DNA from: Sipunculus nudus
Lineage: Eukaryota; Annelida; Sipuncula; Golfingiida; Sipunculidae
Direction of reading: 5' to 3'
NCBI GenBank assembly: GCA_026874595.1
Contig: CM049315.1
Span: 16,186,164-16,250,163 of the forward strand
DNA length: 64,000 nt
The notes under the pieces were generated by a model that saw only the letters and a list, made by a program, of their open reading frames with translations, made no database searches and was not told the DNA's origin. The stretch's first letter is position 1; every line of letters begins with the position of its first letter. Positions 4,526 through 63,935 of the stretch are shown piece by piece. The position numbers and the translations under genes are program-made.

Positions 4526-4526
4526 A

Positions 4527-5325: not shown

Positions 5326-8300
5326 ATTTCATCCTACCCCAACCTTACCAAGAAAGTTTCTGTGTATTTCAAATGCAATTTTGCAAAAAAAATGCATTTT
5401 TTTTGGTCAAAATTTATAATTAAGCATAAACTCATCAGCCCTTTTTTGCCAAATACTGAAGTGATCCTGTAATTATTTTTTTATTAAGATAATTTAAAAG
5501 ATCCATCCCAATTTAACATAAGTTTATAGACATGATCTTCTAGCTAATCTGCCCTAATTCAAAAGGGCATTCTGGACATTAATTCAGTCTAATTAGATTG
5601 TAGATTTTGTTGTATTTGAATGTGTGATATTCTTGTGTAAGCCCTGAAACCCTTCCTTGTACCTACTCTGTAGAATAAACAAAATGTTTACATTCAATTT
5701 CTGTATAAATGGGATGGGCAAGAGTTCTTTAAACTAGGCTTATGTCATGTGTTTATTACATTATGCAATTTCTGTTTTAAAGTTTAATATTTGTTCAAGC
5801 CAGGTGAAGCCCGTAAAACCTGAGTGAAAACTGCAATTACATTGGCTAATGCAAATTATTGCACATTACAGTGTACGGAGTTCACTTGAATTTGTCTGGG
5901 TTATTTTGAAATAAGACAATTTAATGAAATAAAGTCTAACATGATTTGATTTAAACTATCTATACCACAAGATTAAAGTGAATGGCAATTGATTTTGTTA
6001 TTGAACATATATCACTGTATAGATAATACCATGTCTGTCAGTTCTGATATATTATATAATATTTTTAACATAATTGAATGAATAAATATATCAATTAACA
6101 GTATATACTTTTATAGGTGACAGTAGGTGTTTCTCTGAGGAGGGAATATACAAATTTTATGCAAGAGATAATTATATTAAAACAAATCAATTTTATGTAA
6201 ATAAATAATATGAATAAGAAAGAAAATTACAAATATTAACTTATACCAACATAGTACCACCATTCAGCACTTGCTTCACTCAATATTTAACTGTGACACC
6301 ACTTGTGCTTCAAGTGACAATTCCACATTCACAAATTGACACCCCAATTTACAGAATTCTTCCTACTCATGTGAACCTTAACGAACATGGACAAAGGTAA
6401 AGGTGCACTTTAAGGAAGGAGGTGTGAACTTCTTTAATCTCCATCCCGGTGGATATATGTGTTACTACTGGTCATACTCTGGAATGTGACAGGATAAATA
6501 CAGGGGGCGTGGACCTCAGCCCCTTCGCTGGGCTTCAAAATGATAGATGGCCTGGGAACCCACCGGGCCACCCTTTGGTTCACAAATTTCTACCTGGTGA
6601 CAACCTGCCCATATATAATAATATCTTGCCTATCTAGCTGAGGAATTTGCGCTTGTTGTGGGTTAGAGTTCACTAGAGAATCATGAAAGGATATAGTTAA
6701 CTATTGCTATTAGGAGAATTCCACGTGCAGCCTTCAGGTGCGCTTAATCTACAGTGTTCAATAGGCCTAACCCCCATTGGGAGAGCAAGTTTTGTTCATG
6801 GACAAAGCCTCGCTGAGGGTCTTCTGGGTGCATGCCACCGTAAAGTCTGGCGCAACTCAAGTGGCCGATTCTAGTACTTGCTTACACATACGTTATACTG
6901 AAACATCCTCCAGACATCAAATATTGCCTGTTAACTGCCAAACTTCTGCCCGCTAGCCACAAAGCTATCCCCGTTAAAAACACTGTGGGGCCATATTGTG
7001 TCATTGCACTAGCTGTATAATGCTACAATTTAATTCATCTGGTGTTACTCACTCAGACCTCTGTATATATTTCACACACTTCACATGTAGGTTTGTGGAT
7101 TTCTGTACCTGAGCCCTAAAGGTTAAATCTGCTGTTTTGTCGAATCATCAAATGACTCCACAGCTCCCCACAGGCAATGAACCCTCTTGAGTGCATGCAA
7201 ATATGTTAGGGTACACAAAAGGACTTAATCTCACTGATTATAATAAATAGTTACACTTATACTGTTTAAGAAATTATACGATTTTCCTTAATAATTCAAT
7301 AAGTAATCTGTTTAACAATTAAGTGTATGTCTCTTGCTCTTTGTCAATTTTTTGTCATCTTCATAATTTTCAAATTTTGTTCAGGTCCGCTGACTTTTAG
7401 TCATGAGCTATAGAATACCTAAAACATATCCTGTAGTGACAGAACTGGGAATATGTTTGAATTAATATAGAATGACATATACTTCAAAAACAGGGAGCTC
7501 ACTGAGTTATCAAGAATCATGAAGTTAGCATTACTAAGTCTTAATTTTATAAAATCACATGTATCAAGAGTTAGTGTAAAAATTTATGTATAAAAAAAGT
7601 AGCTGAATAGACAGGAAAAGGGAACATTTGAGAAAAAATATGTAAATGATACATAAGAGACGTTATTATGGATGTTTAATGATACCATCTAGACAGGTCT
7701 ACATCTGGGTGGCTCATCATAGGATGTGTGACATGACATAACATGTGCATAAAAAACACTCAAACATGAACCAGATGTAGAAAACATCACAAGAAAACAC
7801 AGATTCAAGTCATCTTAATACCCTTATCAGAATATATTCTTTCTGTTCTGAAGGACTATTACTTAAGAAGCTTTGATCCTTGTTGAGAGGGGAGGTGGGG
7901 GTCACCCGAGATATTCCCATACCAAGGTACTCGAGGGTTCTCAAGTCAAGTGGTCTCCATGCAGAAGAACTGCCTGGGCACACACTTCTTGAGCGCAAAT
8001 GTGTTACACAAGTCTGGTAAACACTAAAGGAAATACTTGAAGCAAGTCCCCATGATAAATCACGTTTCTTTCCTCTACTTGTCATAAGGTTCTAGGGGGT
8101 ACATGTCAATTATAAAACAAACTAGAAAGAACCAGGAATTTTATAATAGCTCCCAGATTCAATAACGTCTCTAACAGATACCACATTGATAGCAAGACTG
8201 AACATATGTTGTTAAATATATACAGGCCAGCTAGAATAATCTATCATGTGTTCTGTAACAAACTTATCTCATAACCCTTCCCCTTCCCTTAACATTATAA

Positions 8301-15120: not shown

Positions 15121-16545
15121 TTTTAAGTTCAGGAGGTGTCGTCTGGTCAAAAGTAGGTCAACAAGGGCAAAATGCCAACTCGATCTGTAACGGGTCATTA
15201 TCAAGCAACACACCAAAAATCATGCCAGTATATGCAGGCATTGTGAAAAAAGTCCATACATGTGCATTTTCCATAAAAATTTCTGTCTTTCATGAAATTT
15301 TCTATGTTTAGGAACCGTAAAACAATGAAAAGTAGGTCAACCGGGGCGAAACTCGAACTCGATCTGTAACTGTCATTATCTGCCCACACATAAAAAATCA
15401 GGGTGATATCTGCAGGCATTGAGGAAAAAAAGTCAGTACATATGCATTTGTTATGAAAATTTATATTTTTCATGAAACTTTCTATGTTCAGGAGCAGTCA
15501 AATGGTCAAAAGTAGGTCAACTGGGACAAAACAAGAACTCGATCTGTAACTGGTCAATATCTGCCTACACACCAAAAATCAGGCCCGTATCTGCAGGCAC
15601 TGCAAAAAAAAGTCCATACATGTGCACTTTCTTATGAAATTTTCTATGTTAGAGCACCGTCAAATGGTCAAAAGTAGGTCAACTGGGACAAAACGAGAAC
15701 TCGATCTGTAACTGGTCAATATCTGCCATCACACCAAAAATCAGGCCAATATCTGCAGGCATTGCGGAAAAAAGTCCGTACATGTGTATCTGTCATGAAT
15801 ATTTCTATTTTTCATGAAATTTTCTAAGGTAATTATGCGTAAAACGTTCAAAAGTAGGTCAACTGGGACGAAACGCGAACTCGATCCGTAACTGGTCATT
15901 ATCTGCCCATACACAAAAAATCAGGCCAATATCTGCAGGCCTTGCGAAAAAAAGTCCGTACATGTGTATTTGTCATGAAAATTTCTATTTTTCATGAAAT
16001 TTTCTAAGTTTAGGAGCAGTAAAACAGTCGAAAGTAGGTCAACTGCGACGAAACGCAAACTCAATCTGTAACTGGTCATTATCTGCCTACACACCAAATA
16101 TCAGGCCAATATCTGCAGGCATTGCGAAAAAAAGTCCGTACATGTGTATTTGTCATGAAATTTCTATTTTCAAGAAATTTTCTAAGTTTAGGAGCCGTAA
16201 AACGGTCAAAAGTAGGTCAACCGGGACAAAACGCGAACTCGATCTGTAACTGGTCTATATCTGCCCACACACCAAAAATCAGGCCAATATCTGCAGGCAT
16301 TGCGAAAAAAAGTCCGTACATGTGTATTTGTCATGAAATTTCTATTTTTCATGAAATTTTCTTAGTTTAGGAGCCGTAAAACGGTCAAAAGTAGGTCAAC
16401 CGGGACGAAACGCCAACTCGATCTGTAACTGGTCTATATCTGCCCACACACCAAAAATCAGGCCAATATCTGCAGGCATTGCGAAAAAAAGTCCGTACAA
16501 CTGTTTGATTTCGGAATGACGGAAGGACGGAAGGACGGAATGACG
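15121..16545. repeat. Tandem array, ~180-bp unit, about 8 copies, ending in a GACGGAAG microsatellite
   Basis: The motif AAAGTAGGTCAAC recurs near 15,151, 15,331, 15,511, 15,671, 15,851, 16,031, 16,211 and 16,389, a period of 179-180 bp with one 161-bp unit. Each unit contains CTCGATCTGTAACTGGTC, AATATCTGCAGGCATTGCG and a poly-A stretch followed by GTCCGTACATGTG. The right end is a short GACGGAAG/GACGGAAT run at about 16,516-16,545. Left units are more diverged than right units. A non-autonomous element whose core is a short tandem satellite next to a tetranucleotide-like microsatellite resembles the bivalve pearl / Helitron-like families; that assignment is inference. Confidence 0.85.
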
Positions 16546-18355: not shown

Positions 18356-18600
18356 ATCAGTATCATCCCAAAGTTTATTGCTCATAGATATCATTCCAAA
18401 TTTAATTGCTCATCGATATCATTTCAAAGTTATAATTGATATCATTCAAAAGTTAATTGCTCATTGATACCATTCCATGTAGTTAATTGCTCATCAATAT
18501 CATTTCAAAGTTAATACTGATATCATTCCAAAGTTAATTGCTCATTAATATCATTCCAAAGTTAATTGCTCATCGATATCATTTCAAAGTTAATTGCTCA
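18356..18600. repeat. Minisatellite, ~28-31-bp unit, about 8 copies
   Basis: Repeated TATCATTCCAAAGTTAATTG followed by CTCATCGA, with shortened units at about 18,430 and 18,510. Units differ by single substitutions, indicating a moderately old array. Confidence 0.85.
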
Positions 18601-27165: not shown

Positions 27166-27450
27166 GATTTTTATTCCATAATATTCAATATTGTACTATA
27201 CTCCATATTTGTTAATGTTATTCTATATTCCATTTTTTTATATTATACTATATACCATATTGTTTTATTTATAATTCTATATTCTATATTTTTCAATTTA
27301 ATTCTGTTCCATATTTATCAGTTTTATTCTATATTTCATATTTTTCAATATTCTGTAATCCATATTGTTTAATGTTTTTCTATCTTCAAACTTTTTTATA
27401 TTATTCTATATTCTATATTTGTTATTATTCTATGTTCCATATTTTTCAAT
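27165..27450. repeat. Degenerate AT-rich tandem repeat
   Basis: About ten loosely conserved ~28-30-bp blocks of the form TTCTATATTCCATATTTTT-CAATA. The 73-residue plus-strand frame here is a by-product of the repeat. Confidence 0.7.
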
Positions 27451-30400
27451 ATATCATTTCAAGTCCTGCAAACCAATAACTGAATACTTGCTGGTTTAGG
27501 ATTTCTTCCTTTTATTGAGTTTGATAAAAACTGTAAATTTACCATACTAGTTCTAATCACTATGCATATAAATGCAAAACTCCTTGTTCTGATTAAGTCA
27601 AGGACCCTAATTGAGGATTTTTTTACATTACTAATTAGATTATCATAAGGCCCGTTATCATCTTTACTAAGCCTACCAGACCTGATGATTCTATGGCATG
27701 TAGATTTATGAAGTGAGTGAAACCACAACGAAGGACCATCTTTCGGAATACACATCCTGGCCTCAACACCCCAAAGTTCTGTCAATTTATATTTCAAGTG
27801 GTCAATCAGGAGTTCACTGTTAGTATTTTTTTATTATGAGCACTGCTATGTATAAGGAAGTTTTGATGTGACACTTATTGTAGCAAACAAATTTATTAAA
27901 ATATTCTTTGGTTGATGGTATTGATCAGTTGAATCATCTTAAGCATTCTCTTTTGACATACCGCTAACTCAAACATGATATCTTATACAATAATATACCA
28001 TAATGCACAATCCAATGTATGCATATCCATGATATCCCATTGCTGTTACAAATTAGTATTTTACAATGTTTTAACTTTTTTTGTTTAAAAAAAAAAACAT
28101 TTTTTGTGAACCTGGCAAAAGTGCAAGGAAACAATTGTGTCTGCTACACCTTGTCAATGGTAATTAGCATATACCCTCACAGGTAAGTTAAGTGGTGTGA
28201 GGGGTCTTTTGTTGGTTCTGAGGCTAACCTGCACTTGATGACCCCTGGACCCTTTCGGCAGAGCTGAGTAGCCTACACATGATCTGATGACAATACCCCA
28301 GCAAACAACACCCAAGCCAGGCAAACATTCCTTCAGAAATTGAATATGCTTAGATCAATGTCTGATCCATAACTGGACAACTGACCATCGGTCACTCTCA
28401 GGTCCGTTACCAGTGTCTGCAGTTTTTCCTTTGTTGCTGCCCTGGACATGAAGTGACAACAACACTCAAATCAGCTGAATGCATTCCATTAAGCTTTTAT
28501 ACCAACGTCTCCCTCAAACTATTTTTATTATGCTGAACAGCTGAAATTATTCTATATCATCACATACATATAACAAAGAAACCCCAGAAAGTAAATCACA
28601 CCTCTTCCTGATAAACATTTACATTTTCACTTACTTGGAACTGACTATCTTCTCCTGGTATTTGCTTTCATCTTTTCTCATTATAATAGAAATTAAATTA
28701 AAGCTTTTAATTACTGCTTCATAGCAGTCTGTTGAAAATAATATATTTGCATTTATGTATACTCTCTAAAACTTCCAAAATATCATAAGAAATTATGTAT
28801 TTAATTTTATGGAAATCAATTTTAATTTGAACTCTACCTGAGTAAAATCTAAAATATCCCAAATTTGCTTTGCAAATATATTAAATTAACTGACCAAATA
28901 TTTGACCACTATAAGGCATATGATTCTAAAAAAAGTAATAAAAGAAAATGCCTTAAAATTCTTGATAAATAAATCTCTAAATCTGAGGTTTTATCACGCC
29001 TTGTCCATCAGTGGACCACCTGTACAGCTGGTCAGTGTCATATTGCATATTACACATCGAACTCAACTGACCCAGGGTCAATACAATATTTCCCCTGACA
29101 AAAGACCAATTACTAGCAATGTAAAGTCAACAGCCTGTCAAGTCACCTGTTGGCCTGAAAAATCCATGCTGCAAGTTTTGTTCATGAATAATTTGGTTGC
29201 TGCCTGTATACAGATGACCTTAAAGCCTAAACAGCTTATAAAAATCTTATGTTCAGGGCAGTTTCACTGCCCCATAAATGAAAGATTTCACTGACATAAG
29301 CACAGGTGGTTAATAGATATATGAAGGAAGGTAGCAAGAGGCAGTGGTTGGGGCACTTTTTTTTTATTATTTTTTTTTTTGGTGGAGGTAACCACCTCCA
29401 CTTTTTAATGTTAACTACTTATAAGTACATCTGCAGAATTCCATTCCGGTTCCGCACTACCTTGAGGATATATATATACCTAGCTGAAGACAAATGTAAT
29501 GCAAGTTAAAGTCTCGTCACTAGTAGAAAATGAAGCAAAGTTAAATGTATAAGACTGGATGCCAAAAAAGGGTTTTCCTATTTTTTTAAATTCATTTTCA
29601 CAGTCTTTTCAAGATCATTAATTTTGATTTTTGCACCTTGGCTTTAACTATAACATATGCCCTCAGTCAGCTAATCCTCCTACATTTTTCTGATGCACCA
29701 TTTTATTACATGTAAGTCTTAGTATACAAAAAATAATAATAATTTGTGAACAGGTAAAAGCCTGCATTGCTTCCCTGGGTCAGCCATTGCCAGCTGTTAT
29801 AGTATAATTCAAGGTCTTTTCAAGTTTTTTTTTCAATATTAACTAAATTTAAGCAGTTTAAAGGCCTTTTAAATACATAAAAAACTTCAGGGATTTTAAA
29901 TATTTTTAAACATATACCAAAAATGTATAGAAATATTATCTGAGTGATATGTGAGATCCAAAATCAGTGTTTTTCAGTGCGACTTTCTTTCTGACTTAAG
30001 ATCCTCAGACAGTAGACCAAATAAATATTGTAAACTTATCTTCATTAGAATGCATAACATCACATGCCGGTCGGTGCTTCCAGAGGTAAATAAAAAGTAC
30101 AATGGACGCTGTCATAAACAAGCAGAACTTGTGTTGACAAAGGATTTCTATTCCACTGGCTAAATGACAGTCCAGACCCAAGCGAAGTATTGAACTTGTT
30201 GTACAATCTATTGTACCTGTGGTACAAACCAGTACTGGCTGACCTCAAGTTCACTGTACTGCACACCAGCCACCCCAGGCCAGCCTTTGTCCAGACCTGT
30301 CCAGCCGAAGAACAGACCAACACAAAACCTCGTGAATACAATCACCTCTGATGTCATAAGGTGCAATGACCCGCACAGGAAACTTTCTGGACTTTTGATA

Positions 30401-36615: not shown

Positions 36616-36663
36616 AATGTAAATGTAATTTTAGTATAAGCAGCATGTAAGATTATAATAAAG

Positions 36664-36670
36664 ACTTACC
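36664..36670 (-). other. 5' splice site ending the Dachsous exon
   Basis: Minus-strand CTCACG|GTAAGTC, a near-perfect donor directly after a Thr codon (phase 0). It decides the exon end; the frame otherwise runs 12 codons to a stop without cadherin similarity. Confidence 0.85.
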
Positions 36671-38421
36671 GTGAGCAAACACTTTCCTACAGGTGTATCT
36701 TCTGGCACCGAGACATTATAGAAACTATGATCAAATACAGGTTGGTTGTCGTTCACATCATGTAGTTTTACGATAACAGTTGTACTCCCGGATAACGGGG
36801 GTACTCCGGCATCAGTTGCAATAATAATTAAATGTGGTTTTTCCATTGTTTCACAATCCATGTTGCTTTTGGTTGTAATTAATCCTGTCATGTTGTCAAT
36901 CTGGAACCATTCTGGATGTACCGATTCTTCGGGATCAATTGAGTAAGATAGCAACGCTCCAGTCCCGACATCTGGATCAACTGCAGTTACCTGCAGCACG
37001 GATGACCCAGGTGGCGCCACTTCCTGTATGTAAGCGTAATAAGTTTTCTGTGGAAAATGAGGTTCGTTATTATTGGTTCCTGTAACATAAAGAGTAAAAC
37101 TCTTCATGGCCCTCAGAGGAGGCTTGCCCCTATCAGTGGCAGTCACAGTTAATTGATAATATGGTTTGCTCGCTTGATCAAGAGTTGAATTCAACACTAA
37201 AAAAACTATATTATTCTTTTTTTTCTGTAGGTGGAAATGGCCCTCTCCACCCGTCAGCGTCACATTAATAGGCAAGTTTTGGCCAGGCACATCAGGATCA
37301 CTAACTGATATTTGAGCAATTAAGTACCCAGGTGTAGCGATTTCTGGTATACGCCCATTCTTTTCATCATTAAGAAACACTAAATTGATATGTGGTTGGT
37401 TGTCATTGATGTCTGATATGGCTAAGGATACGACAGCAGTCGTCTGTAGGCGCTGAGACCCATAATCTCGGGCGATCACAACCAATTTGTAACTTGACTT
37501 CTTTTCATAATCTAATCTCTTGTTCACATATATTTCTCCTGAGGTTGGATTGACCTCAAAGTTTCTGTGTGGGTCACTGTGTTGCCTGTCAATAATGTAA
37601 CTGACTCGGCCATTCTGTCCAGAGTCCTGGTCTGTCGCTTCAACACGCAGAACAGTTGTTCCAATAGTGGCATTTTCGGGCACTTTTGCAGAATAACGAC
37701 TTTGATTAAATAAGGGTGCATTATCATTGGTATCACCAATGTCTACATGAACATTAAGATAACCTGACTTTGGTGGTGTTCCTCCGTCATAAGCTCGAAT
37801 CCTTAAATCATATGAAGGCACAGTTTCGTAATCCAATGTATCATTCACCTCGAGGTTGAGAAAAAGAACATTCCCAGCCTTTTTGGTGTCCAATTTAAAA
37901 GCTCCATCCGTATTCCCAGACACAATCTCATATCCCTGCGTAGAGTTGATTCCATTATCTGGGTCAATGGCGCTGCCTAATGAGTTGTCCGAAGAAATGG
38001 GCGTTGACTCTGAGAGGAGTATCCGTAGACTTGTTTTATTAAATGTTGGAGCATTATCATTAATATCCAAGACATTAATAATAACATGAATTTGCATCCT
38101 CTTCGTCAATGCATACATAATGTATTTGTTGGTTTTCTCACGATCTATCCTGGCTTTTGTTTTGATTAGTCCATAATCATTAATATCAAGATCCTGGGCA
38201 ACGCGGCTGTTGGGCTCCCAGAAAAACTGATATGGTGGTAATGCCCCCTGTATACCTTCACCAATGGTTCCCACAACAGTACCGATGTCAACTTCTTCGG
38301 GTAAATCAAATCGTTGTTGTGAAACCTGTTGGCACACACTAGATCTTACCAGTAGTAAAAGCATTAAAAAGAGAGGGGCTCCACTCTGCAGGCAATACCA
38401 CAACCTTTGTTGAAACGACAT
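36670..38421 (-). CDS. ds: Dachsous-type giant cadherin, first coding exon (partial gene)
   Basis: N-terminal 584 codons of a large cadherin. Dachsous is an atypical cell-surface cadherin that binds Fat in trans and sets planar cell polarity and growth. Residues 1-30 form a signal peptide (hydrophobic core APLFLMLLLLV). Cadherin repeats follow: EC1 ~38-126, EC2 ~127-237, EC3 ~238-344, EC4 ~345-455, EC5 ~456-562, and the start of EC6. Linkers DINDNAP (119-125), DTNDNAP (230-236), DINDNQP (337-343) and DVNDNQP (~555-561) are calcium-binding. The EC4/EC5 linker GTNNNEP (448-454) has lost both Asp residues. The exon ends at 36,670 with a minus-strand ACG|GTAAGT donor in phase 0; reading on gives an early stop. 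The acceptor TTTTATTTTCAG lies 13 bases upstream of the ATG. The TQGYEIVSGNT, WFQID-TGLITT and FYNVSVPE motifs match my recollection of insect and vertebrate Dachsous. Later repeats, the membrane segment and the cytoplasmic tail are not in view. Confidence 0.85.
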
Positions 38422-38437
38422 CTTTAATGCTTGTCTG
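38422..38437 (-). other. 3' splice site and short 5'UTR upstream of the Dachsous start codon
   Basis: Minus-strand TTTTATTTTCAG|ACAAGCATTAAAG precedes the ATG by 13 bases. This implies that an upstream non-coding exon lies to the right and that translation starts in the second transcribed exon. Confidence 0.65.
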
Positions 38438-40138
38438 AAAATAAAACTACATCCATTAAAGTTTTTCTATATTACTTAAGTTATAATCTTCATCTAGTAC
38501 TTCATCAATTGTGTACATTAAAATTATTTTGATGCACATATTGGCAAAGCTATTCATGCCTTGCCAGACCTACCACAATTATTTAAATTAATATCATATT
38601 CACCAATTTCAAACTCATGCAAGGGAGAATAAAAACTAACATTTCAACAGTTTTGTCTGACTAATCAACTGTTTTAAGAAAGATCTTTGTTTGGAACATT
38701 TATATTGTGAAGATATGCAAAAGTACAAGTTACTGGATTTAATTGCACTGGAACATTCTTCATAATCCTATGGGGTGCCAATATTCAAGCTGTAACTGAG
38801 TCTACTTATTATATACTCCCTCCCTCTATATATATACATATATATTTACTGTAAATAACTAAATGAAATGGAAAACTCTATTCTGGCCTTGGTGAGACTT
38901 CATTTAAAGAGTATAAAACATAAAACATCGCCCACTATTAGTATTTTATCTTTATATTCAGTGTTTTACAATTACATTCAATGTAATTTGTTGTTAATGC
39001 TAACAAAATTTAACAAGCGAGAAATATAAAACACCGGTCCATGGATATATCGGTCAGTGTGTGCCTGTGTTCCATTAAATATGAAAAAGACACGCTTGTA
39101 TTACAATATTACATGTAGGAATGCACTTCTGGCATGTATTGTGTATACATGTGCGCTGGTGTTGTCGTATTGCATGGGAACCACGGCGCTGTGCCTTATG
39201 TCAAATGCAGAGGGGAATGAAAACCACAGCCAAATTTCCCTATTCTATGTGATATAAAATAATATAAATATACTTACTGTTTCTAACGATGTTGGTGTGC
39301 TATATTTTGTTATAAAACGGCATGGTTGTTCTTGATGCACACAGGTAAGCGTGCCAGTTCTGACATATTCCCTTCTCTCCAAGTGTACTCCGTTCCTCGA
39401 TTCCTGTAGAAACAGTGCTAGCCTGCTCAATGCAAAATTAGGTCAAATCACCGACGGGCTAATGGGAATTCAACCACAGAAATCCGGCATTATAATCACG
39501 GTTTCAAGCTACAGTTTCTCATCGCACGCTACAAGAAAGTGTAAAGTCAAATATATATGCTGGTGTTGAAAAAAAAATATCAGATAAATTATAAATGGTG
39601 GTTTATACAGATAAAAAGATTTGCAGAGGCCGGGACCTTATTCCCATTATCCTGTCGGTTCTCATAGAATCTGTGCCATATTTACCTGGCGCTGGCCAAT
39701 CACAGGCGCCGGAGCAGAAGGGCTTGAATACCAGCAGGCGACCGGGTGTCAATCACTTGCATATTAGAGGGTCTAGCATTAATTATCAAATTAAATATTA
39801 CATAACGGGTGTTACGGTGTTTTCATTGGATTGCCTCGAAATCCCTCGTAATAAACTTGCTAGAACAGTGTATTAAACACTTGAAAAGTGGCGCCATGGG
39901 CATTAGTCAGTTAGTATACAACTATATTGACATTGCATACAATGCACAACCCAGGCCTGTTGAATCGTGACAGACTTCATAAGGCCTGCTAAAAGGCTAA
40001 CACAAATACATGATTCGCCCAAAACCGGCGTGTGAGTGTGAGCTTTGAGATCAGAAGTATCCACAAGGAACTACCATGCAAACTTAATATTTTACTGTGG
40101 CTAGGACAAAGAATTTCAAATTATACGGTTGTCAGAAA

Positions 40139-41009: not shown

Positions 41010-41131
41010 CACCCATGCTGTAACAGTAACCATGCTGAAACAGTAACCATGCTGTAACAGTAACCATGCTGTAACAGTAACCATGCTGTAACAGTAACCA
41101 TGCTGTAACAGTAACCATGCTGTAACAGTAA
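41010..41131. repeat. Minisatellite, 17-bp unit, seven copies
   Basis: ACCATGCTGTAACAGTA repeated head-to-tail seven times with one T-to-A change in the second unit. Near-identity of the copies suggests a young or homogenised array. Confidence 0.95.
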
Positions 41132-49307: not shown

Positions 49308-50729
49308 AACGTCAGTGTGTTGTTGTGATCTCATCCTAATTTTAGCAATGATCACACACATTGAAAAGTAATATGTTCTCGTGTTTGTATTGGAGTAAAA
49401 CAAACACACACAAAATCAAAACAAAATATTAGTGAGAGGACATTTATGGAAACTTGGGGACTTAATAGCCAGCGCCTGCAAGAGTAGATTCGAAATCATC
49501 AAGAAATTATGGATTAATCGGTGGACATGTTATAATGGTGTTATAAAAACGCAATCTCTCCCCATGCAATTAGAAAAAAAAGTCAATATATTACAAGCCC
49601 TTGCAGTTAATTTTACCTATATTAATTTTGTTCACATGGTGATAGGTCAGAGCAGGTACTATAGATGTTGAATTGAAAAACGGAAACATTCATTTAGTTC
49701 AGCCCGAACCATTTTCTTTCCCTCAGCAAAGTATAACTGATATTAATTAAAAAAAAAATGAAACTATTTCAAATTCAAACAACAATAATATGAGCCAACA
49801 ATAGGTTTTTTATCCGAGTTACGAGTATTTCCTGGACATCTGTATGTTATGAAGGCACCGGGTTTGGCTGAAGCTGGTGATCAAGACGGACTTTTCGAAA
49901 TGTATACTACTGGTATCCCTCAAATCATGCACCACTCAAATCATCTCCACAAGTCTTAATTACAAGTCGTGATTCACTCAGGCAATTTATAAAATGACTG
50001 AAATTTAAATTGACTAAAAATGAGTCAGTTTATTTGGCACATTGAATGAAATGTGAAATGGAAGAATTAACAAAGATATCAATAACAATTCATTTATTTC
50101 ATATACCTTACTCTTACACAATATTAATATATTTTACAAAATATTATTGCAGAGTTTGATCTGTGATATAATCAAAAGCGTCCATTTGGCTTAATTCTGA
50201 TTCTTGCAAAAATAATTATGTAAATATATGATATATAAATGTTATACTAGCTCTCTCAGGGCTGCTTTTGCACTTAGGGAGTGTGTAGGTATGGTGTCTC
50301 CCTCCTCAGTGCGGGAAAATGGTTACAATTTTCTTTCAGCAAAGTTTTCAGCAATTTTGAAGCAATTTTAATCCAATCGCAGAATGTAAATGGCAAACTT
50401 TACTTATAAGTAACAAACTCAGTCGGGAATTGTGAAGAATCCCTATCCCCTATACTCCACCCATAAGCAAATCTTAATACTTTATTTGATATTAAGAACT
50501 TCATATGTAACTATGGTTATCCTTCACCTTTCTACATAAAAAAATCACATATTATTGTACATTTTAATGTTTCATTTAATTAAAAGCTCCCATTTGATTT
50601 GATTCACGTTCTTACACAAGCAAAGATTTTAGTCATATGAGTTGTAAAATAGTATGTTTCAGTTTATAATAATAGCATTCATATTTCAACTATATTATTC
50701 ATGGTTACCCCTCACCGGTCTGTGTATTT
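49306..50729. other. Non-coding stretch with partial internal repetition
   Basis: No recognised gene. Segments at about 50,175-50,220 and 50,583-50,630 are similar (AAAAGC-CCCATTTG-TT-ATTC-GTTCTT), as are 50,505-50,535 and 50,695-50,725, suggesting decayed repeats. Confidence 0.4.
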
Positions 50730-50969
50730 CAGGGGCAGACCCAGAATTTAGGAAAGGGGGGGGGGGGGGGGGGGCGGTCCAACCCCGGAGGACAAAGGAA
50801 ACACATAAAAAAAGGTCACCGGGTCCAGAAAAGGGGGGGGGGGGGTCCAGGCCGCAAAATTTTGTCTGAAACCCTTAAAAAGGTTGCTTCGGATGAAAAA
50901 AAGCGGGGGGGGGGGGGGGGGGGGGTCCGGACCCCCTGAACCCCCCCCCCCGGCCCGGATACGCTTCTG
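50730..50969. mobile_element. hAT-like MITE carrying long poly(G)/poly(C) tracts
   Basis: Begins CAGGGGCAGACCCAGAATTT and ends CGGCCCGGATACGCTTCTG; the reverse complement of the end, CAGAAGCGTATCCGG, is an imperfect inverted repeat of the start. Metazoan hAT-family miniature elements typically have CAGGGGCGGATCC-like ends, which is the basis of the assignment. A TATTT word flanks both sides, a possible remnant of the target duplication. Inside are G runs of 13-22 and a C run of 11. No coding capacity. Confidence 0.6.
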
Positions 50970-52254: not shown

Positions 52255-52350
52255 CCATCACATGATTAATACTCATATACGGGGTGGGACGACGCCTAAC
52301 AGAACTGTCGACAGGCGAGAATAAAAGCCCCGGTCATAGCTGCGTCACAT
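52255..52350 (+). promoter_or_regulatory. Core promoter of ferritin A
   Basis: ATAAAAG at 52,321-52,327 is a TATA-like box; the conserved TCACATCAGAACAG at about 52,345-52,358 is where initiation would fall 25-35 bases downstream. The upstream block CATCACATGATTAATACTC...ATATACGGGG is shared with copy B, so the promoter was duplicated with the gene and is under some constraint. Confidence 0.7.
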
Positions 52351-52369
52351 CAGAACAGTTGTCGTACAC

Positions 52370-52401
52370 TTGCCTTGGGACGTCAGTGAACGTACGGGCA
52401 A
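52370..52401 (+). promoter_or_regulatory. Iron-responsive-element-like hairpin in the ferritin A 5'UTR
   Basis: Loop CAGTGA at 52,384-52,389, closed by a perfect four-base-pair ACGT/ACGT stem; the outer arms TTGCC and GGCAA also pair. IRE loops of this sequence bind iron regulatory proteins and repress ferritin translation when iron is low. It is about 20-35 bases from the inferred cap site, the position from which IREs act. Departure from consensus: the fifth upper-stem pair is G with A, and the usual unpaired C six bases 5' of the loop is G. Confidence 0.75.
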
Positions 52402-52487
52402 CATTCGACAAGACGAACACACGAACCACCAGCCAACAAGTCTGAAAGGACAAAATCTTCAGAGCAAGGGAAGATATTGGCATCAAG

Positions 52488-52589
52488 ATGGCTTCCAGAC
52501 CACGCCAGAATTATCATGAGGAAAGTGAAGCCGGGGTCAACAAGCAAATCAACCTTGAGTTGTACGCCAGTTACGTGTACCAGTCCATG
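52488..52589 (+). CDS. Ferritin A exon 1 (34 codons)
   Basis: ATG is the first in-frame start after the IRE. The exon ends TCCATG|GTCAGT. Differs from copy B exon 1 only at synonymous sites that I can see. Confidence 0.95.
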
Positions 52590-55487
52590 GTCAGTTGCTT
52601 TTTACATTTTACGTGTTTTTATTTTATGTTATATAAATTAATTACAGTCGATGAGTGCGCCCATGACTTTACTGAAACACCATTTTGATTCTTAAATATT
52701 GGGTAATATTGTCTCAGCGCCTTACTCTGAAAGGCTTCACATAAATATTCGAGCACGTGTCGTCTACTGTGGTATTGATCCGGGATGTCTATTATGTAAT
52801 ATCCAGGCTTCCCTCCAATATATCTTGCCGTCAGGTTGGCCGCTTGGCGGAAAGCAGACAGGTGGTTGTTCCTGGCAGGTTGGTTTTTAGGGGGGGCGGG
52901 GTATGTCAGTAATAGATAAAACAGTGCAGTCATTACAGATAGTCTTAATAAAAAAATGTCTTAAATGTAACCACAGTACCACACCTAGGCCAGTATAATG
53001 TCCACTGTTGGTAAAATGTCTAGTATTGGTAAACATAATGTCATACAAGTGCCTGCAATGGTGCAAAAGAACAACAAGGGTCATTTATAGGTGACGGAAA
53101 CAGTCACTCATAAGTATATACTCATTATCTAATAATAAACCATCAAACTTATAATAACATACATTATCATACAATAAAAGTTTTTTTTTTTAAATTTGAA
53201 ATAAGAATCCAGATAAAGCAGTAATAAACATTTTATGTTCTATGTCACAGGGACATACATTATCATTTGATGTTATTTTTCAAACTTTGGTTATGTAGGC
53301 CTGGTATTTTGACCGCGACGATGTGGCCCTTCCGGGTTTCCACAAGTTCTTCAAGGAAGCCAGCAAAGAGGAGCGAGAGCACGCCGAGAAGTTGATGAAG
53401 TTCCAGAACCAGCGGGGAGGTCGCGTCAAGCTGTCCGACATCAAGGTACCAGACCAGGAGAGCTGGGGGACAGGGCTGGACGCCATGCAGGCTGCACTGG
53501 AGCTGGAAAAGAACGTGAACCAGTCTCTGCTGACGCTGCATGATACTGCCGAGAAACATGGTGACAAGCAGGTAAATACCATGTACCATACTAAATTATG
53601 TTGTCATAGCGACAAACAGGTCAATACCAAACTAAACTGCATTGTCTTGGCGACAAACAGGTGACTACTAAATTGAAGCTCGTAAATTGTAGATTGGAAA
53701 TGTTTCATGGAAAGGGTATCAGTGGGACCAGCAGGTAATATGATTGGCGTGAAATATCATTGTGGGGGTTAGCATCTTAATGGTGAGTTGGAAATGTTAT
53801 CCTGGAGACCAGTGGGTAAATGGTGGGTTGGAAATGTTATCATGAGGACCAGCAGGTAAATGTTGGGTTGGTAATGTTATAATTGGGACCAGCAGGTAAG
53901 ATGGTGAGTTGGAAATGTTATAATGGGGACCAGCAGGTAAATGGTGAGTTGGAAATGTTATCATGGGGACCAGCAGGTAAATGGTGAGTTGGAAATGTTA
54001 TGATGGGGACCAGCAGGTAAATGGTGGGTTGGGAATGTTATAATGGGGACAAGCAGGTAAATGGTGTTTGTTTGATATGTTATCATGGGGACCAGCAGGT
54101 AAATGGTGTGTTTGTTTGATATGTTATCATGGGGACCAGCAGGTAAATGGTGGGTTGGAAATGTTATCATGAGGACCAGCAGGTAAATGGTGGGTTGGGA
54201 ATTTTATCATGGGGACCAGCAGGTAAATGGTGGGTTGGTTATGTTATAATTGGGACCAGCAGGTAAATGTTGGGTTGGTAATGTTATAATGGGGACCAGC
54301 AGGTAAATGGTGAGTTGGAAATGTTATGATGGGGACCAGCAGGTAAATGGTAGGTTGGGAATGTTATAATGGGGACAAGCAGGTAAATGGTGTGTTTGTT
54401 TGATATGTTATCATGGGGACCAGCAGGTAAATGGTGTGTTTGTTTGATATGTTATCATGGGGACCAGCAGGTAAATGGTGTGTTTGTTTGATATGTTATC
54501 ATGGGGACCAGCAGGTAAATGGTGTTTGTTTGATATGTTATCATGGGGACCAGCAGGTAAATGGTGGGTTGGAAATGTTATCATGAGGACCAGCAGGTAA
54601 ATGGTGGGTTGGGAATTTTATCATGGGGACCAGCAGGTAAATGGTGGGTTGGTAATGTTATAATTGGGACCAGCAGGTAAATGGTGAGTTGGAAATGTTA
54701 TAATGGGGACCAGCAGGTAAATGGTGAGTTGGAAATGTTATCATGGGGACCAGCAGGTAAATGTTGGGTTGGTAATGTTATAATGGGGACCAGCAGGTAA
54801 ATGGTGAGTTGGAAATGTTATAATGGGGACCAGCAGGAAAATGGTGAATTGTAAATGTTATGATGGGGACCAGCAGGTAAATGGTGGGTTGGGAATGTTA
54901 TAATGGAGACCAGCAGGTAAATGGTGTGTTTGTTTGATATGTTATCATGGGGACCAGCTGGTAAATGGTGGGTTGGGAATTTTATCATGGGGACCAGCAG
55001 GTAAATGGTGGGTTGGAAATGTTATCATGGTAACCAGTAGGTAAATGGTTGGTTGGAAATGTTATCATGGGAACCAGTGGGTAAATGGTTGATTGGCAAT
55101 GTTATCATAGGGACTAGTGGGAAAATGGTGAGTTGGAAATGATATCATGGGGACCAGTGGGTAAATGGTGGGTTGGAAATGTTATCATGGGGACCAGCAG
55201 GTAAATGTTGGGTTTGTAATGTTATAATGGGGGCAAGCAGGTAACTGGTGAGTTGGAAATGTTATCATGGGGACCATCGGGTAAATGGTGGACTGGATGG
55301 TATTCGTATTTCCGAGTTCTCTATTGATTTTTCTTTCCAGATGTGTGACTTCATTGAGAGTGAGTTCCTGCACGAAAAGGTGGAGGCCATTAAACGTCTG
55401 TCCGACTACATCCGTAACCTGGAGCGCGTGGGAAGTGGTCTGGGAGAGTACATGTTTGACAAGGAGACCCTGGACGGTGAATCCTAA
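52488..55487 (+). CDS. Ferritin (H-type subunit), copy A, three coding exons
   Basis: Iron-storage ferritin subunit, 173 residues, expected to form a 24-mer cytosolic shell that oxidises Fe(II); there is no signal peptide. Coding join: 52,488-52,589, 53,299-53,571 and 55,341-55,487, all junctions phase 0. Landmarks: [20 protein letters not shown] in helix [53 protein letters not shown] and [12 protein letters not shown]. By alignment to the vertebrate H chain (offset 3), ferroxidase residues Glu24, Tyr31, Glu58/Glu59, His62 and Glu104 are present, but the Gln141 equivalent is Lys138. TATA box, IRE-like hairpin and ATG stand in the usual order. Intron 1 is 709 bp; intron 2 is 1,769 bp and filled by a repeat grown from the exon-2 splice donor. 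Polyadenylation signals follow the stop. Confidence 0.96.
52590..53298 (+). other. Ferritin A intron 1
   Basis: 709 bp, donor GTCAGT and acceptor TTTGGTTATGTAG. No element or repeat of note apart from an A/T-rich right half. It does not align with copy B intron 1 over any long stretch. Confidence 0.85.
53299..53571 (+). CDS. Ferritin A exon 2 (91 codons)
   Basis: From GCC TGG TAT to AAG CAG|GTAAAT. Carries helix B and C ferroxidase residues. About 93% identical to copy B exon 2 by my count; four residue changes (W36S, D39R, K57E, V84A going from A to B). Confidence 0.95.
53572..55290 (+). repeat. Intronic minisatellite derived from the exon-2 splice junction (decoy 5' splice-site array)
   Basis: The first units (53,572-53,690) resemble the true junction: GCGACAAACAGGTCAATACC and GCGACAAACAGGTGACTACT. 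From about 53,725 the array shifts to ~40-bp units of ATGGGGACCAGCAGGTAAAT followed by GGTGGGTTGGAAATGTTATC; some units are 43 bp with a TGTTTGTTTGATATG insert. The exon end itself reads ATGGTGACAAGCAG|GTAAAT, matching 18 of 20 bases of the unit. Of about 40 units I count roughly 30 keeping CAG|GTAA; the rest read TGG|GTAAAT, TAG|GTAAAT, CTG|GTAAAT or CAG|GAAA. Each intact unit is a consensus U1 snRNA-pairing 5' splice site. Confidence 0.93.
53572..55340 (+). other. Ferritin A intron 2
   Basis: Donor CAG|GTAAAT, acceptor TTGATTTTTCTTTCCAG. Nearly the whole intron is the splice-donor-derived tandem repeat. Confidence 0.93.
55341..55487 (+). CDS. Ferritin A exon 3 (48 codons plus stop)
   Basis: From ATG TGT GAC after CTTTCCAG to TAA. 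Encodes helices D and E. Lys138 (AAG) stands where H-type ferritins have the ferroxidase-centre Gln. Confidence 0.95.
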
Positions 55488-60782: not shown

Positions 60783-60885
60783 CCCATCACATGATAAATA
60801 CTCATATACGGGGAGTGAAGACGGCTAACAGAACAGTCGACTGGCACGTATAAAAGCCCCCGGTGCAGCCGCGTCACATCAGAAC
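60783..60885 (+). promoter_or_regulatory. Core promoter of ferritin B
   Basis: TATAAAAG at 60,849-60,856, a better TATA box than in copy A, followed by the same TCACATCAGAACAG initiation region. The upstream block with ACTCATATACGGGG is shared with copy A. Confidence 0.75.
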
Positions 60886-60898
60886 AGTTGTCGTTGAC

Positions 60899-60930
60899 TT
60901 GCCTTGGGACGTCAGTGAACGTACGGGCAA
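60899..60930 (+). promoter_or_regulatory. Iron-responsive-element-like hairpin in the ferritin B 5'UTR
   Basis: Identical to the copy A hairpin, loop CAGTGA at 60,913-60,918, with the same departures from the consensus. Confidence 0.75.
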
Positions 60931-61016
60931 CATTCGACAAGACGAACACACGAACCACCAGCCAACAAGTCTGAAAGCACAAAATCTTCAGAGCAAGGGA
61001 AGATATTGGCATCAAG

Positions 61017-61118
61017 ATGGCTTCCAGACCACGCCAGAATTATCATGAGGAAAGTGAAGCCGGGGTCAACAAACAAATCAACTTGGAGTTGTATGCCAGT
61101 TACGTGTACCAGTCCATG
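61017..61118 (+). CDS. Ferritin B exon 1 (34 codons)
   Basis: ATG after the shared 5'UTR; ends TCCATG|GTCAGT, phase 0. Confidence 0.95.
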
Positions 61119-63603
61119 GTCAGTTACTTTTTAAATGATACACAAATAACAATTGTAATTACATATGAAAATATTGTTTTATGATTGTGTACTCTCTTTA
61201 ACTGGGTGCTTGCATTTTTAACGATTAATGTCTCGGTATTTACAGGAATAGGCCTAAAATTGTGTTTGTGTGCGTGTCGTCTGCTGTTTTACTGATGCGT
61301 AGAATTTGTAGCGCAATGTTTTTGGCTTCCAGCCAAAATGGCTCTCTGTCAGATTGCACGCTTGGCGAGAACTGCTTTGCTCACAAGAGTAGTTAAAGAG
61401 TTCAACTCTACTGTTCAAGACTGTTTAGCTCATCTGACTTGAAGTCATCTAAGCTATAACGATCACGCTTTGTCTGTCGTCCTTTCATCCGTCCGGTTGT
61501 CCGGCCGTCCGTCCGTTAACAGTGCGAAAAATTACAACCGTTTAACCTAGAAACTTCTATCTGTATACCCTGCGAAGTCCATGAAAAATTTCCTTGGAAA
61601 CCTTAAATTAGGTCTCTGTTACCCATATCCTCCGCGCTATTCGGCTTGTAAGTACCCAACCCCGAATCATTAAAATTTTTATACAAAAGTTCTGAATAAC
61701 TTTTGCATTTTTCGCCATGATTTTTTGCATGCATCAGTTCCTGCAGACTGGTGGCGCCACCTGTATTTTTTTTAAATTTTCACACATTCTTTTGTCTGTT
61801 TTAGGCCTTCATATGAAGCAATCTGAAGTTAATAGGACACAAAGCGTAACCTTTATACCTAGAAACTTTAACATCAAGGGAGGTCCTAAGTCCAAACTCT
61901 CTAGAAACCTGAAATCAGGTCATGGTGACCTATATTTTGCGAACTACTGGCCAAAAAGATGATTTTGAGCACCAAGAGAGTCGGACGGGGCACTTATTGT
62001 AACTGTAGACCTAGAAGCTTCTGTCTGAAAACCCATAGATGTCCATAAAATAATCAAATTTTACATCTGAAATTAGGTCACTGTGACCAATATTCTTCGA
62101 GCTTTGGGGCACGTATTACCCCCTCCCCAAGAATAATTAAAAATTTGATACAGAGCTCCAGTATCTGAATAACTGATGCATTGATTGCCATAATTTCTTC
62201 CATGCATGTTGATCATGGAGAGTTTCATCATTTCCTGGAGAGAGATGGTGCCACCTGTATTTTTATGCATTTTTCTCTGTTTCGAGACCTTTTAAGAAGC
62301 GGTCTGGCTTTTAATAGGGAAAAAATCATAACCGTTAGACCTTAAAACTTCTAACTGTACAGCCAGTTCTAGGCAAACCTCCTATGAAACCTGAAATAAG
62401 GCCATAGTGACCTATATTCTGCAAGAACATGAGCTGAGTACCCTGTAGGACAGATTTGCCGGATTGGTAACAGTTGGACCTAGAAACGTCTAATTTGATT
62501 AAGACCCAGGGAGGTTCCTGTTAAAATTTATGAAAAAACCCTAAATAATGTCACTGTGAACTATATTCTGCGAGCTGTGTAAAAGAACATGGTTTGGCAC
62601 TCTATTAGTCAGATGGGCACAATTGGTAGCAGTTGGATTTAAAATAAGGTCACTGTAATCTTTATTTAGGGTCTATTGGTAAATGCATGATATTGAGCAC
62701 AATGGGAGTCGTGTTACCCATGGTTCAACCTTTCATGATTCAGCTGAGCGTCATGGCCCATGGGCCACTTGTTTTATTAAGAGATTGTTTTTCCCAAAAT
62801 ATATAATACAGTTGTGCAAGGGAGTAGACTTAGGCCATCAAAATACGTGTGAATTGATTCAATGCAAATTAAAAACAAATTATTAAAAAAGTAATGGTAA
62901 GTATGTGCTATGTAAATAGCTTTATCTTGACGGCGTGATGCGATGCCGTGAGCGTTCAGTTCTGAACTGCGGCTGTCGCTCCACAATCCCTAATGGAAAG
63001 TGGATTTGAATAGACATGACCGATAGAGGAAGGCTGGGGAAGTGATCCCAGAATCGTCAGATCCCAGAAGGGTGGTGGTGTTTCTTGCTTGTATATTTGT
63101 CGAAATGAATGTATGCGATATTGCAACGTATGTACTATACATGTACACATAAATGCATAGAATACGGTACTTAAGCATAAAGGGGCATGTTTTCTGTGCA
63201 CAAGATCATGTAGAGAAATACTTACTTGTCACTCATATATATGTTTATAAGGCGAGGTCAGAAATAACTGCTTTTAGGCCACCCAGCTAAGACGTGAACA
63301 TGAACCTGCAAATTGTGTTTGTCTCTGCAGGCCTCGTATTTCCGGCGTGACGATGTGGCCCTTCCGGGTTTCCACAAGTTCTTCAAGGAAGCCAGCGAAG
63401 AAGAGAGGGAGCACGCTGAGAAGTTGATGAAGTTCCAGAACCAGCGGGGAGGTCGCGTCAAGCTGTCTGACATCAAAGCTCCAGACCAGGAGAGCTGGGG
63501 GACAGGGCTGGACGCCATGCAGGCTGCACTGGAGCTTGAGAAGAACGTGAACCAGTCTCTGCTGACGCTGCATGATACTGCTGAGAAACATGGCGACAAG
63601 CAG
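61017..63603 (+). CDS. Ferritin (H-type subunit), copy B, exons 1-2 (gene continues past the window)
   Basis: Second ferritin subunit gene, coding join 61,017-61,118 and 63,331-63,603 (125 codons seen); the helix D-E exon should lie beyond base 64,000. Exon 1 encodes the same 34 residues as copy A. Exon 2 reads [18 protein letters not shown] and keeps Glu58/Glu59, His62 and Glu104, so the visible ferroxidase ligands are intact. Differences from copy A: Ser36, Arg39 (Asp in A and in most ferritins), Glu57, Ala84. The 5'UTR from the IRE to the ATG differs from copy A at one base in about 120, whereas introns are largely unalignable. Intron 1 is 2,212 bp and carries an inserted dispersed element absent from copy A; intron 2 begins with the junction-derived repeat. 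Confidence 0.95.
61119..63330 (+). other. Ferritin B intron 1
   Basis: Donor GTCAGT, acceptor TTTGTCTCTGCAG. About 1.5 kb longer than in copy A, mostly accounted for by the ~1.35-kb element at 61,427-62,772. Confidence 0.9.
61427..62772. mobile_element. Dispersed non-autonomous element with palindromic terminus, copy 2
   Basis: Opposite orientation to copy 1 (35,574-36,440). The left end is the palindrome AGCTCATCTGACTT-GAAGTC, followed by GATCACGC and GTCCG/CGTCC-rich sequence. The right end is CAGCTGAGCGTCATGGCCCA then TGGGCCACTTGT. Interior units repeat loosely (ACCTAGAAACTT, GGTGGCGCCACCTGTATTTT and GGTGCCACCTGTATTTTTAT about 0.5 kb apart). Longer than copy 1 because of more internal units. 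No protein is encoded. Confidence 0.75.
63331..63603 (+). CDS. Ferritin B exon 2 (91 codons)
   Basis: From GCC TCG TAT after GTCTCTGCAG to AAG CAG|GTAAAT, phase 0 at both ends. Same length as in copy A. Confidence 0.95.
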
Positions 63604-63935
63604 GTAAATACCAAAATAAATTATGATGTCATTGCGACAGACAGTTTAATATCATACTAATTATGTTGTCAAAGCGACAAGAAGGTAAATAGGAAACTAA
63701 ATTGTTGTTATTGGGACAAGCAGGTAAATACGAAAGTACATTGTATATCATGGCAACAAGCAGGTAAATACGAAACTAAATTATGTTGTCAAAGTGACAA
63801 GCAGGTAAATACAAAACTAAATTGTCATGGCGACAAAGAGGTAAATACTAAACTAAATTGTTATCTAAGAGACAAGCAGGTAAATACGAAATCAATTGTT
63901 GGCATGCGAACAACAGGAAAATACTAAATTATGTT
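63604..63935 (+). repeat. Junction-derived decoy splice-site repeats in ferritin B intron 2
   Basis: About seven units of ~45-50 bp of the form GCGACAAGCAGGTAAATAC then AAACTAAATTATGTTGTCA, directly continuing the real exon-2 donor (GGCGACAAGCAG|GTAAATACC). Donor words include AAG|GTAAAT, CAG|GTAAAT (several), GAG|GTAAAT and a broken CAG|GAAAAT at about 63,915. Confidence 0.9.

What the first reader, a model, noticed from the sequence alone, without database searches (positions are those of the whole stretch)
53690..55290. Ferritin intron 2 is a tandem array of about 40 copies of the gene's own 5' splice site
Seen directly: the repeat unit ATGGGGACCAGCAGGTAAAT matches the exon-2/intron-2 junction ATGGTGACAAGCAG|GTAAAT at 18 of 20 bases, including exon codons for Asp-Lys-Gln. 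About 30 units keep CAG|GTAA, a consensus donor. Established: U1 snRNA pairs with MAG|GTRAGT, and U1 bound in introns can suppress premature cleavage and polyadenylation; competing donors alter splice choice. Inference: this is a self-amplified splice-donor minisatellite that could act as a U1-binding array, a splicing timer or a buffer controlling ferritin output. I know of no description of this arrangement in a ferritin gene.
Basis: partly seen in the sequence, partly recalled or inferred. Interest (0 to 1): 0.82.

Follow-up and report, generated by a model that had tools for sequence, protein, structure and literature searches.

The report
Splice-junction minisatellite in paired ferritin genes
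An animal ferritin gene carries about 40 tandem copies of its own exon-2/intron-2 splice junction inside that intron, and a neighbouring ferritin copy carries a shorter, more diverged version; such junction repeats are already known from other genes and are probably mostly harmless passengers.

Summary
Intron 2 of a soluble ferritin gene (A; coding exons 52488-52589, 53299-53571, 55341-55487) is filled by a 40-bp minisatellite of about 39 copies. Each unit contains a copy of the last 15 exon-2 bases plus the 5' splice site: consensus and real junction match at 19 of 21 bases (best of 200,000 shuffles: 17). Of 41 in-register repeats, 38 keep GT and 30 keep CAG|GTAA. New here: a tandem ferritin paralogue (B) has its own array at the same junction (real junction plus 8 repeats), running on from the real donor. 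Gene A's first repeats are of B type, so the array probably predates the gene duplication and a diverged unit was later amplified in A. Tandem repeats across exon-intron boundaries are a described kind ("mirages", amphioxus), reported not to disturb splicing; in human IFI6, downstream repeats are used as donors. Best explanation: a mirage-type minisatellite, mostly tolerated, with the first donor normally used. A U1-array, timer or buffer function is not supported: there is no expression evidence, and only a weak, post hoc excess of conservation at GTAAAT. If decoys were used, 39 of 41 would put a premature stop at codon 156. The species is unknown.

The parts
52488..52589 (+). ferritin gene A, coding part of exon 1 (102 nt; donor ATG|GTCAGT)
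   Evidence: translation in frame with exons 2 and 3; Pfam PF00210 on the joined protein
53299..53571 (+). ferritin gene A exon 2 (273 nt), ending CATGGTGACAAGCAG (His-Gly-Asp-Lys-Gln)
53572..53577 (+). real intron-2 donor GTAAAT of gene A (predicted from reading frame and homology)
53605..53666 (+). two B-type junction repeats, donors at 53620 (CAG|GTCAAT) and 53661 (CAG|GTGACT)
   Evidence: blastn 53286-53675 against 63318-63704 at 85.8%
53708..55291 (+). main A-type array, 40-bp unit, about 39 copies, most with exon tail plus donor; a second donor-like site, ATG|GTGAGT (9 times) or ATG|GTGGGT (12 times), also recurs
   Evidence: TRF
55292..55340 (+). 3' end of intron 2 with pyrimidine tract and acceptor TTTTTCTTTCCAG
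   Evidence: sequence; pyrimidine fraction 0.81
55341..55487 (+). ferritin gene A exon 3, coding part with stop codon
61017..61118 (+). ferritin gene B, coding part of exon 1
   Evidence: 4 of 102 nt differ from A, no amino-acid change
63331..63603 (+). ferritin gene B exon 2, ending CATGGCGACAAGCAG
   Evidence: 19 of 273 nt differ from A, 4 amino-acid changes; Pfam PF00210
63589..63928 (+). B array: the real junction plus 8 repeats (spacing 36-41 bp), unit = last 15 nt of exon 2 + about the first 25 nt of intron 2; 6 of 8 repeats keep GT

Best explanation
It is a minisatellite born by tandem duplication of a short segment spanning the exon-2/intron-2 junction (last 15 nt of exon 2 plus about 25 nt of intron) in an ancestral ferritin gene: a 'mirage'-type repeat. 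The array was probably present before the ferritin gene duplicated. It survives as 8 diverged repeats in gene B and as the first two repeats in gene A. In A, a diverged unit was then amplified by unequal exchange or slippage to about 39 copies. Mechanism in the cell (inferred): the spliceosome normally uses the first donor, next to exon 2. The decoys are mostly ignored, and a product spliced from one would usually be removed, because nearly all decoys would add a premature stop. Array length is expected to vary between individuals with little effect on ferritin. Shown: anatomy, homology, paralogue array, frame consequences. Inferred: silence of the decoys, length instability, order of events.
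For: Unit consensus matches the real junction 19 of 21. B repeats abut the real donor and carry the exon tail, and A's first repeats are of B type. Departures from the A consensus over 34 ungapped positions are 0-5 in units 8-34, but 11-13 in units 0-4, 4, 2 and 9 in units 5-7 (unit 7 holds a one-base insertion) and 1-6 in units 35-41. An exact 132-bp block recurs 414 bp downstream in the array. A homogeneous core with diverged edges is the usual mark of unequal exchange (general knowledge). The exonic tail is no more conserved than other columns (column-permutation P 0.78 in A, 0.85 in B), as expected of non-coding passengers. The region is rich in tandem arrays. Published mirages are reported not to disturb splicing (PMC3087553, passages; PMC3902484, passage).
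Against: No RNA, population or other-species data could be obtained here, so silence and instability are untested. GTAAAT departs from consensus less often than other columns in both arrays: A 5/156 against 72/728, column-permutation P 0.078; B 3/48 against 48/240, P 0.046; combined P 0.007. The test was post hoc, anchored on that motif, and partly confounded by base composition. Between the A and B consensus, tail plus donor agree at 19 of 21 but the spacer at 8 of 19 aligned (Fisher P 0.002); that is one comparison, and a founder effect could explain it. In human IFI6 downstream repeats are used as donors (PMC4526556, passage), so silence cannot be assumed. Two recurring second sites pair with U1 slightly better than the real donor (-9.2 and -8.4 against -8.3 kcal/mol).
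Confidence: 0.74

Rival explanations
1. Splicing throttle: decoy donors compete with the real donor, and decoy-spliced transcripts are destroyed by nonsense-mediated decay, so the array lowers or buffers ferritin A output, dependent on repeat number.
For: 28 of 41 in-register decoys score at least as high as the real donor. Spliced to exon 3, 39 of 41 decoys give a stop at codon 156, at least 70 nt before the last junction. Weak excess conservation of GTAAAT in both arrays. IFI6 shows that junction-repeat donors can be used (PMC4526556 passage).
Against: No transcript data. Published mirages are reported not to disturb splicing. The exon-proximal donor normally has the advantage (general knowledge). 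Exonic positions -3 and -2 of the donor are among the more variable columns in A, and the CAG is lost in 6 of the 9 units from 54961 on.
Confidence: 0.12
2. U1-binding array: the repeated donors recruit U1 snRNP, protecting the pre-mRNA from premature polyadenylation or enhancing real-donor recognition, with G-rich stretches acting as intronic enhancers.
For: 28 of 41 in-register decoys match or exceed the real donor's score, and the A array has a strong G skew (+0.61) with 88 GGG starts in 1,557 nt. 38 strong plus-strand sites against a mean of 2.0 in 300 dinucleotide shuffles.
Against: No AATAAA or ATTAAA in intron 2 of A (B's array has one AATAAA). The intron is only 1.77 kb. Pairing lacks +5G (-8.3 against -14.0 kcal/mol). 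The shuffle excess follows from tandem copying of one site, so it is not independent evidence. B's array is not G-rich (1 GGG start).
Confidence: 0.05
3. Alternative isoform maker: the first in-frame decoy (53620) gives a 189-aa ferritin with a 16-residue insertion before Met-Cys-Asp-Phe, as with the IFI6 repeats.
For: The 48-nt extension is in frame and stop-free. IFI6 uses two downstream repeats as donors (PMC4526556 passage).
Against: Donor 53620 is weak (CAG|GTCAAT, matrix score 4.8 against 8.8; U1 -5.6 kcal/mol). It is the only in-frame stop-free decoy of 41. In B the first repeat has lost its GT.
Confidence: 0.04
4. Recursive-splicing ratchet points (CAG|GTAAAT as joint 3' and 5' splice sites).
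For: CAG|GTAA in 30 of 41 repeats.
Against: Pyrimidine fraction upstream of the junction position averages 0.42, maximum 0.50, in the 39 repeat registers from 53735 on, below the average AG of 1000-53000 (0.49) and the three real acceptors (0.63-0.81). Intron 2 is short.
Confidence: 0.01
5. Chance resemblance or assembly artefact.
For: Long arrays can be mis-assembled; copy number may be inexact (general knowledge).
Against: None of 200,000 shuffles reached the match. A paralogue array sits at the same junction, and neighbouring copies are graded in type. Units are varied rather than identical: 32 distinct of 41.
Confidence: 0.03

Closest known systems
'Mirage' minisatellites of amphioxus (Adh3, globins BflGb6/BflGb9, troponin C, PGBD5)
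   Same: Minisatellite-like tandem duplications spanning an exon-intron boundary, many repeats keeping splice signals, homogenised core and diverged boundary units (PMC3087553 and PMC3902484, passages). The original report (Canestro 2002) was seen only as a reference.
   Different: Here the gene is a ferritin; only the 5' splice site side is repeated; copy number is far higher (about 39, against 6 and 3 in the two BflGb6 haplotypes); and the array is shared by tandem paralogues. The species of the window was not identified, so amphioxus itself is not excluded.
Human IFI6 (6-16/G1P3) minisatellite providing multiple splice donors (Turri, Cuin and Porter 1995)
   Same: A minisatellite whose repeats provide splice donors. 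Seen as a passage and reference in PMC4526556 and as a reference in PMC2572611; the original paper is not held.
   Different: In IFI6 two downstream repeats are reported as used donors giving isoforms; use here is unknown and nearly all decoys would add a stop. The exact IFI6 unit and its place in the exon are recalled, not seen.
Variable internal tandem repeats at exon-intron boundaries in human segmental duplications (PMC2812944)
   Same: Boundary minisatellites in recently duplicated paralogues, average unit 30 bp (passages).
   Different: Those change transcripts or create introns and average 4 copies. Here the intron position looks ancient (vertebrate H-ferritin has an intron at the same place, recalled), so this is probably not an intron gain.
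Earthworm metallothionein intron-1 minisatellites (PMC12783039)
   Same: Minisatellite in an intron of a tandemly duplicated metal-handling invertebrate gene (passages).
   Different: No boundary-spanning repeat is described in the passages read.

Membership tests
Mirage (exon-intron boundary minisatellite) | Tandem repeat unit containing both exon and adjoining intron sequence of the host gene | tested here: met
   13 of 15 exonic and 6 of 6 intronic bases in the A consensus; B repeats carry tail plus intron start
Mirage (exon-intron boundary minisatellite) | Repeats adjoin the authentic boundary | tested here: met
   B repeats run on from the real donor 63604; A's repeats at 53620 and 53661 follow donor 53572
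Mirage (exon-intron boundary minisatellite) | Many but not all repeats keep splice signals | tested here: met
   A 38 of 41 keep GT; B 6 of 8
Mirage (exon-intron boundary minisatellite) | Concerted evolution inside, diverged edges | tested here: met
   Departures from consensus per unit 0-5 in units 8-34; 11-13 in units 0-4; 4, 2, 9 in units 5-7; 1-6 in units 35-41
Mirage (exon-intron boundary minisatellite) | Length instability between haplotypes or somatically | not testable with these tools
   One assembly only; own-genome search did not complete
Mirage (exon-intron boundary minisatellite) | Regular splicing undisturbed | not testable with these tools
   No RNA data; only the reading frame of gene A was checked
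IFI6-type donor minisatellite | Downstream repeats used as donors giving isoforms | not testable with these tools
   No RNA data; only 1 of 41 decoys is in frame and stop-free
Recursive splice sites | Pyrimidine tract before AG|GT | tested here: not met
   Mean pyrimidine fraction 0.42, maximum 0.50, in 39 repeat registers
Intron gain by tandem duplication | Intron arose from the duplication | tested here: inconclusive
   Exon 3 continues the ferritin frame directly in A; B's exon 3 is outside the window; antiquity of the position rests on recalled vertebrate gene structure

The most novel reading that the evidence does not exclude
Ferritin A carries a length-tunable splicing throttle: a self-copied 5' splice-site array, inherited through a gene duplication and re-amplified in one copy, that diverts part of the pre-mRNA into frameshifted or prematurely stopped, NMD-destroyed products, so that heritable or somatic changes in repeat number set ferritin output. 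Selection keeps GTAAAT in the decoys.
Probability: 0.1. Interest if true: 0.72.

Novelty: new member of a known kind. Interest (0 to 1): 0.42.

Why it matters
It adds a ferritin gene, with unusually many copies, to the boundary-spanning minisatellites. Some 28 decoy donors as strong by matrix score as the real one sit beside it, a natural experiment on how the spliceosome chooses among equal 5' splice sites. The paralogue pair gives a short diverged array and a long homogeneous one in almost the same exon context. If repeat number proved to affect splicing, it would be a readily mutable regulator of iron storage.

Tried and rejected
Recursive splicing: rejected on pyrimidine content. Protection from intronic polyadenylation: no AATAAA or ATTAAA in intron 2 of A; B's array holds one AATAAA. 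Chance match: rejected by shuffles. Dispersed or mobile repeat: apart from the two ferritin arrays, blastn of doubled consensus units (E up to 1) found only 2 short weak hits in the window (E 0.15 and 0.51); nothing outside the window was searched. Selection on the exonic tail: no sign. IRE in the ferritin 5' UTRs: Rfam gave nothing at gathering score for the whole window and only an unrelated chance match at 52300-52600 with E up to 10; both folds show a CAGUGA hexaloop on a 4-bp stem, but with z-scores near 0: inconclusive. Donor scores rest on a recalled human-like matrix, not on one trained for this species.

Literature: of 10 answered paper searches, 9 bore on junction repeats or ferritin introns. 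None of the listed titles and abstract beginnings described such an array in a ferritin, but only open-licence papers are held, three listings were partial (25 of 30, 15 of 19, 10 of 21), and I saw passages of 8 papers and the outline and abstract of one (PMC2891723); none was read whole. The passages shown of the Hyriopsis cumingii ferritin paper (PMC3144951) give four exons and three introns and mention no intron repeat. One search served only to name PDB 6LPE. The species was not identified: the best solved relative by sequence is 6LPE, from Phascolosoma esculenta according to PMC7931202 (passages), but the PDB is a thin sample and amphioxus is not excluded. One search's printed count of 40 decoys with early stops includes donor 53661, which has a frameshift and no stop inside the exon-3 piece given; I count 39.

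Full report
Setting. The window (64,000 bases, 36% G+C) is from an animal genome; the species was not identified. Gene A encodes an intact soluble ferritin of 173 aa: coding exons 52488-52589, 53299-53571 and 55341-55487, Pfam PF00210 E 8.9e-42, best solved relative 6LPE at 306 bits, a Phascolosoma esculenta ferritin according to PMC7931202 (passages). About 8.5 kb downstream lies a second ferritin, gene B (exon 1 coding part 61017-61118, exon 2 63331-63603); its last exon would lie beyond the window. Coding exons 1 and 2 differ at 4 of 102 and 19 of 273 bases, and the upstream region plus exon 1 is 92.9% identical over 353 bp. Exon boundaries are predicted from reading frame and homology, not from RNA.

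Observation. TRF gives 53708-55291, period 40, 39.0 copies. The consensus CATGGGGACCAGCAG|GTAAAT matches the real junction CATGGTGACAAGCAG|GTAAAT at 19 of 21. In 200,000 shuffles of the unit, taking the best of 40 registers, the maximum was 17; for the 15 exonic bases alone (13 matched), 7 of 200,000 shuffles did as well or better. The in-register repeats after the real junction number 41; 38 keep GT, 30 keep CAG|GTAA, 27 are CAGGTAAAT. With a recalled human-like matrix, 38 of 181 plus-strand GTs in the array region score at least as high as the real donor. Of the 41 in-register repeats 28 reach that score, so the other ten sites lie out of register; a second donor-like site, ATG|GTGAGT, occurs 9 times. 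Elsewhere in the window 36 of 7,003 GTs reach that score, on the array's minus strand 0 of 51. Eight unrelated tandem arrays of the window with units of 17-180 bp hold none on either strand; the other arrays listed by TRF were not scored. Shuffling the array sequence gives a mean of 2.0 such sites (maximum 7 in 300 shuffles), but this overstates significance because tandem copies are not independent; 5.2% of shuffled units contain at least one such donor. The exon match, not the donor count, is what excludes chance.

Gene B has its own array at the same junction (63589-63928): the real junction plus 8 repeats spaced 36-41 bp, with exon tail and about 25 nt of intron start, running directly on from the real donor. 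Gene A's first two repeats (donors 53620, 53661) resemble B's repeats, and blastn aligns 53286-53675 with 63318-63704 at 85.8%. The A-type consensus spacer differs from the B-type at 11 of 19 aligned positions, whereas tail plus donor differ at 2 of 21. The simplest history (inference) is a junction array before the gene duplication, retained and diverging in B, and re-amplified from a diverged unit in A. Gene conversion between the copies is an alternative. The A array is homogeneous in its core and diverged at its edges: departures from consensus are 11-13 in units 0-4, 4, 2 and 9 in units 5-7, 0-5 in units 8-34 and 1-6 in units 35-41. It has 32 distinct units of 41 and a 132-bp exact block repeated 414 bp apart, pointing to unequal exchange.

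Consequences if decoys were used. Joining each in-register decoy to exon 3: 1 of 41 (53620, a weak CAG|GTCAAT) gives an in-frame 189-aa protein; 1 of 41 (53661) gives a frameshift without a stop inside the exon-3 stretch examined; 39 of 41 give a stop at codon 156, at least 70 nt before the last junction, so NMD would be expected (the NMD rule is general knowledge). Three of the 41 have lost GT and are counted here only for frame. In B, 7 of 8 repeats lie beyond a stop at codon 144; the first (63645, no GT) would shift the frame.

Selection test. In unique A units, GTAAAT departs from consensus in 5 of 156 cells against 72 of 728 elsewhere (column-permutation P 0.078; rank 2 of 29 six-column windows). 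In B it is 3 of 48 against 48 of 240 (P 0.046; rank 2 of 31, with ties). Combined P is 0.007. In A's edge units the effect is weaker (P 0.16), and the nonamer including exonic positions is not special in A (P 0.33) but is in B (P 0.018). The exonic tail is not conserved in either. I chose the test after seeing the data, registers were anchored on this motif, and base composition explains part of it (expected 0.37 against observed 0.19 departures per unit in A, 1.04 against 0.38 in B). It is a hint only.

Mechanism. Most likely a passenger: the exon-adjacent donor is used and the decoys are tolerated. [quoted passage not shown] Against silence stands human IFI6, where two downstream repeats are used as donors (PMC4526556, passage; Turri 1995 seen only as a reference). 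U1 protection from early polyadenylation is unlikely in A: the intron is 1.77 kb and has no AATAAA or ATTAAA, although B's array has one AATAAA. Recursive splicing is disfavoured by the lack of pyrimidine tracts.

Membership and novelty. The array meets the four mirage features testable here (boundary-spanning unit, adjoining the authentic boundary, partial retention of splice signals, homogenised core with diverged edges). Length instability and undisturbed splicing could not be tested. I therefore file it as a new member of a known kind. None of the titles and abstract beginnings listed by my paper searches described such an array in a ferritin; the library holds open-licence papers only and some listings were partial. 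The shared array in two paralogues, the high copy number and the gene involved make it a good system for study, not a new category.

Limits. No RNA, population or relatives' data; species unknown, amphioxus not excluded; the own-genome search did not complete. The claim that vertebrate H-ferritin has an intron at the same place is recalled.

Noticed in passing
61017-63930: Second ferritin gene (B) with changes at the start of exon 2 (W to S and D to R relative to AWYFDRDD in A); its exon 3 lies outside the window, so it is unknown whether B is functional.
   Followed up: partly
52350-52430 and 60880-60960: 5' UTR of both ferritins contains a CAGUGA hexaloop on a short stem resembling an iron-responsive element; Rfam did not call it in the whole window at gathering score or in 52300-52600 at E up to 10.
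   Followed up: partly
53708-55291: A-type spacer is G-rich where the B-type spacer is A-rich (several A-to-G differences in a row); G skew +0.61 and 78 overlapping two-tetrad quadruplex-like matches on the plus strand of 53735-55291.
   Followed up: partly
36631-38466 (minus strand): Long open frame with cadherin repeats and a FAT4-like N-terminal domain (Pfam): a protocadherin/FAT-like gene.
   Followed up: partly
4520-5327, 15145-16499, 18361-18600, 27172-27452, 41013-41131: Several other minisatellites (periods 24, 180, 28, 27, 17); the region is rich in tandem arrays. Scored only for strong donors: none.
   Followed up: partly
50648-50939: Glycine-run open frame in more than one frame (GADPEFRKGGGGGG...), looks like a G-rich repeat rather than a gene.
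   Followed up: no
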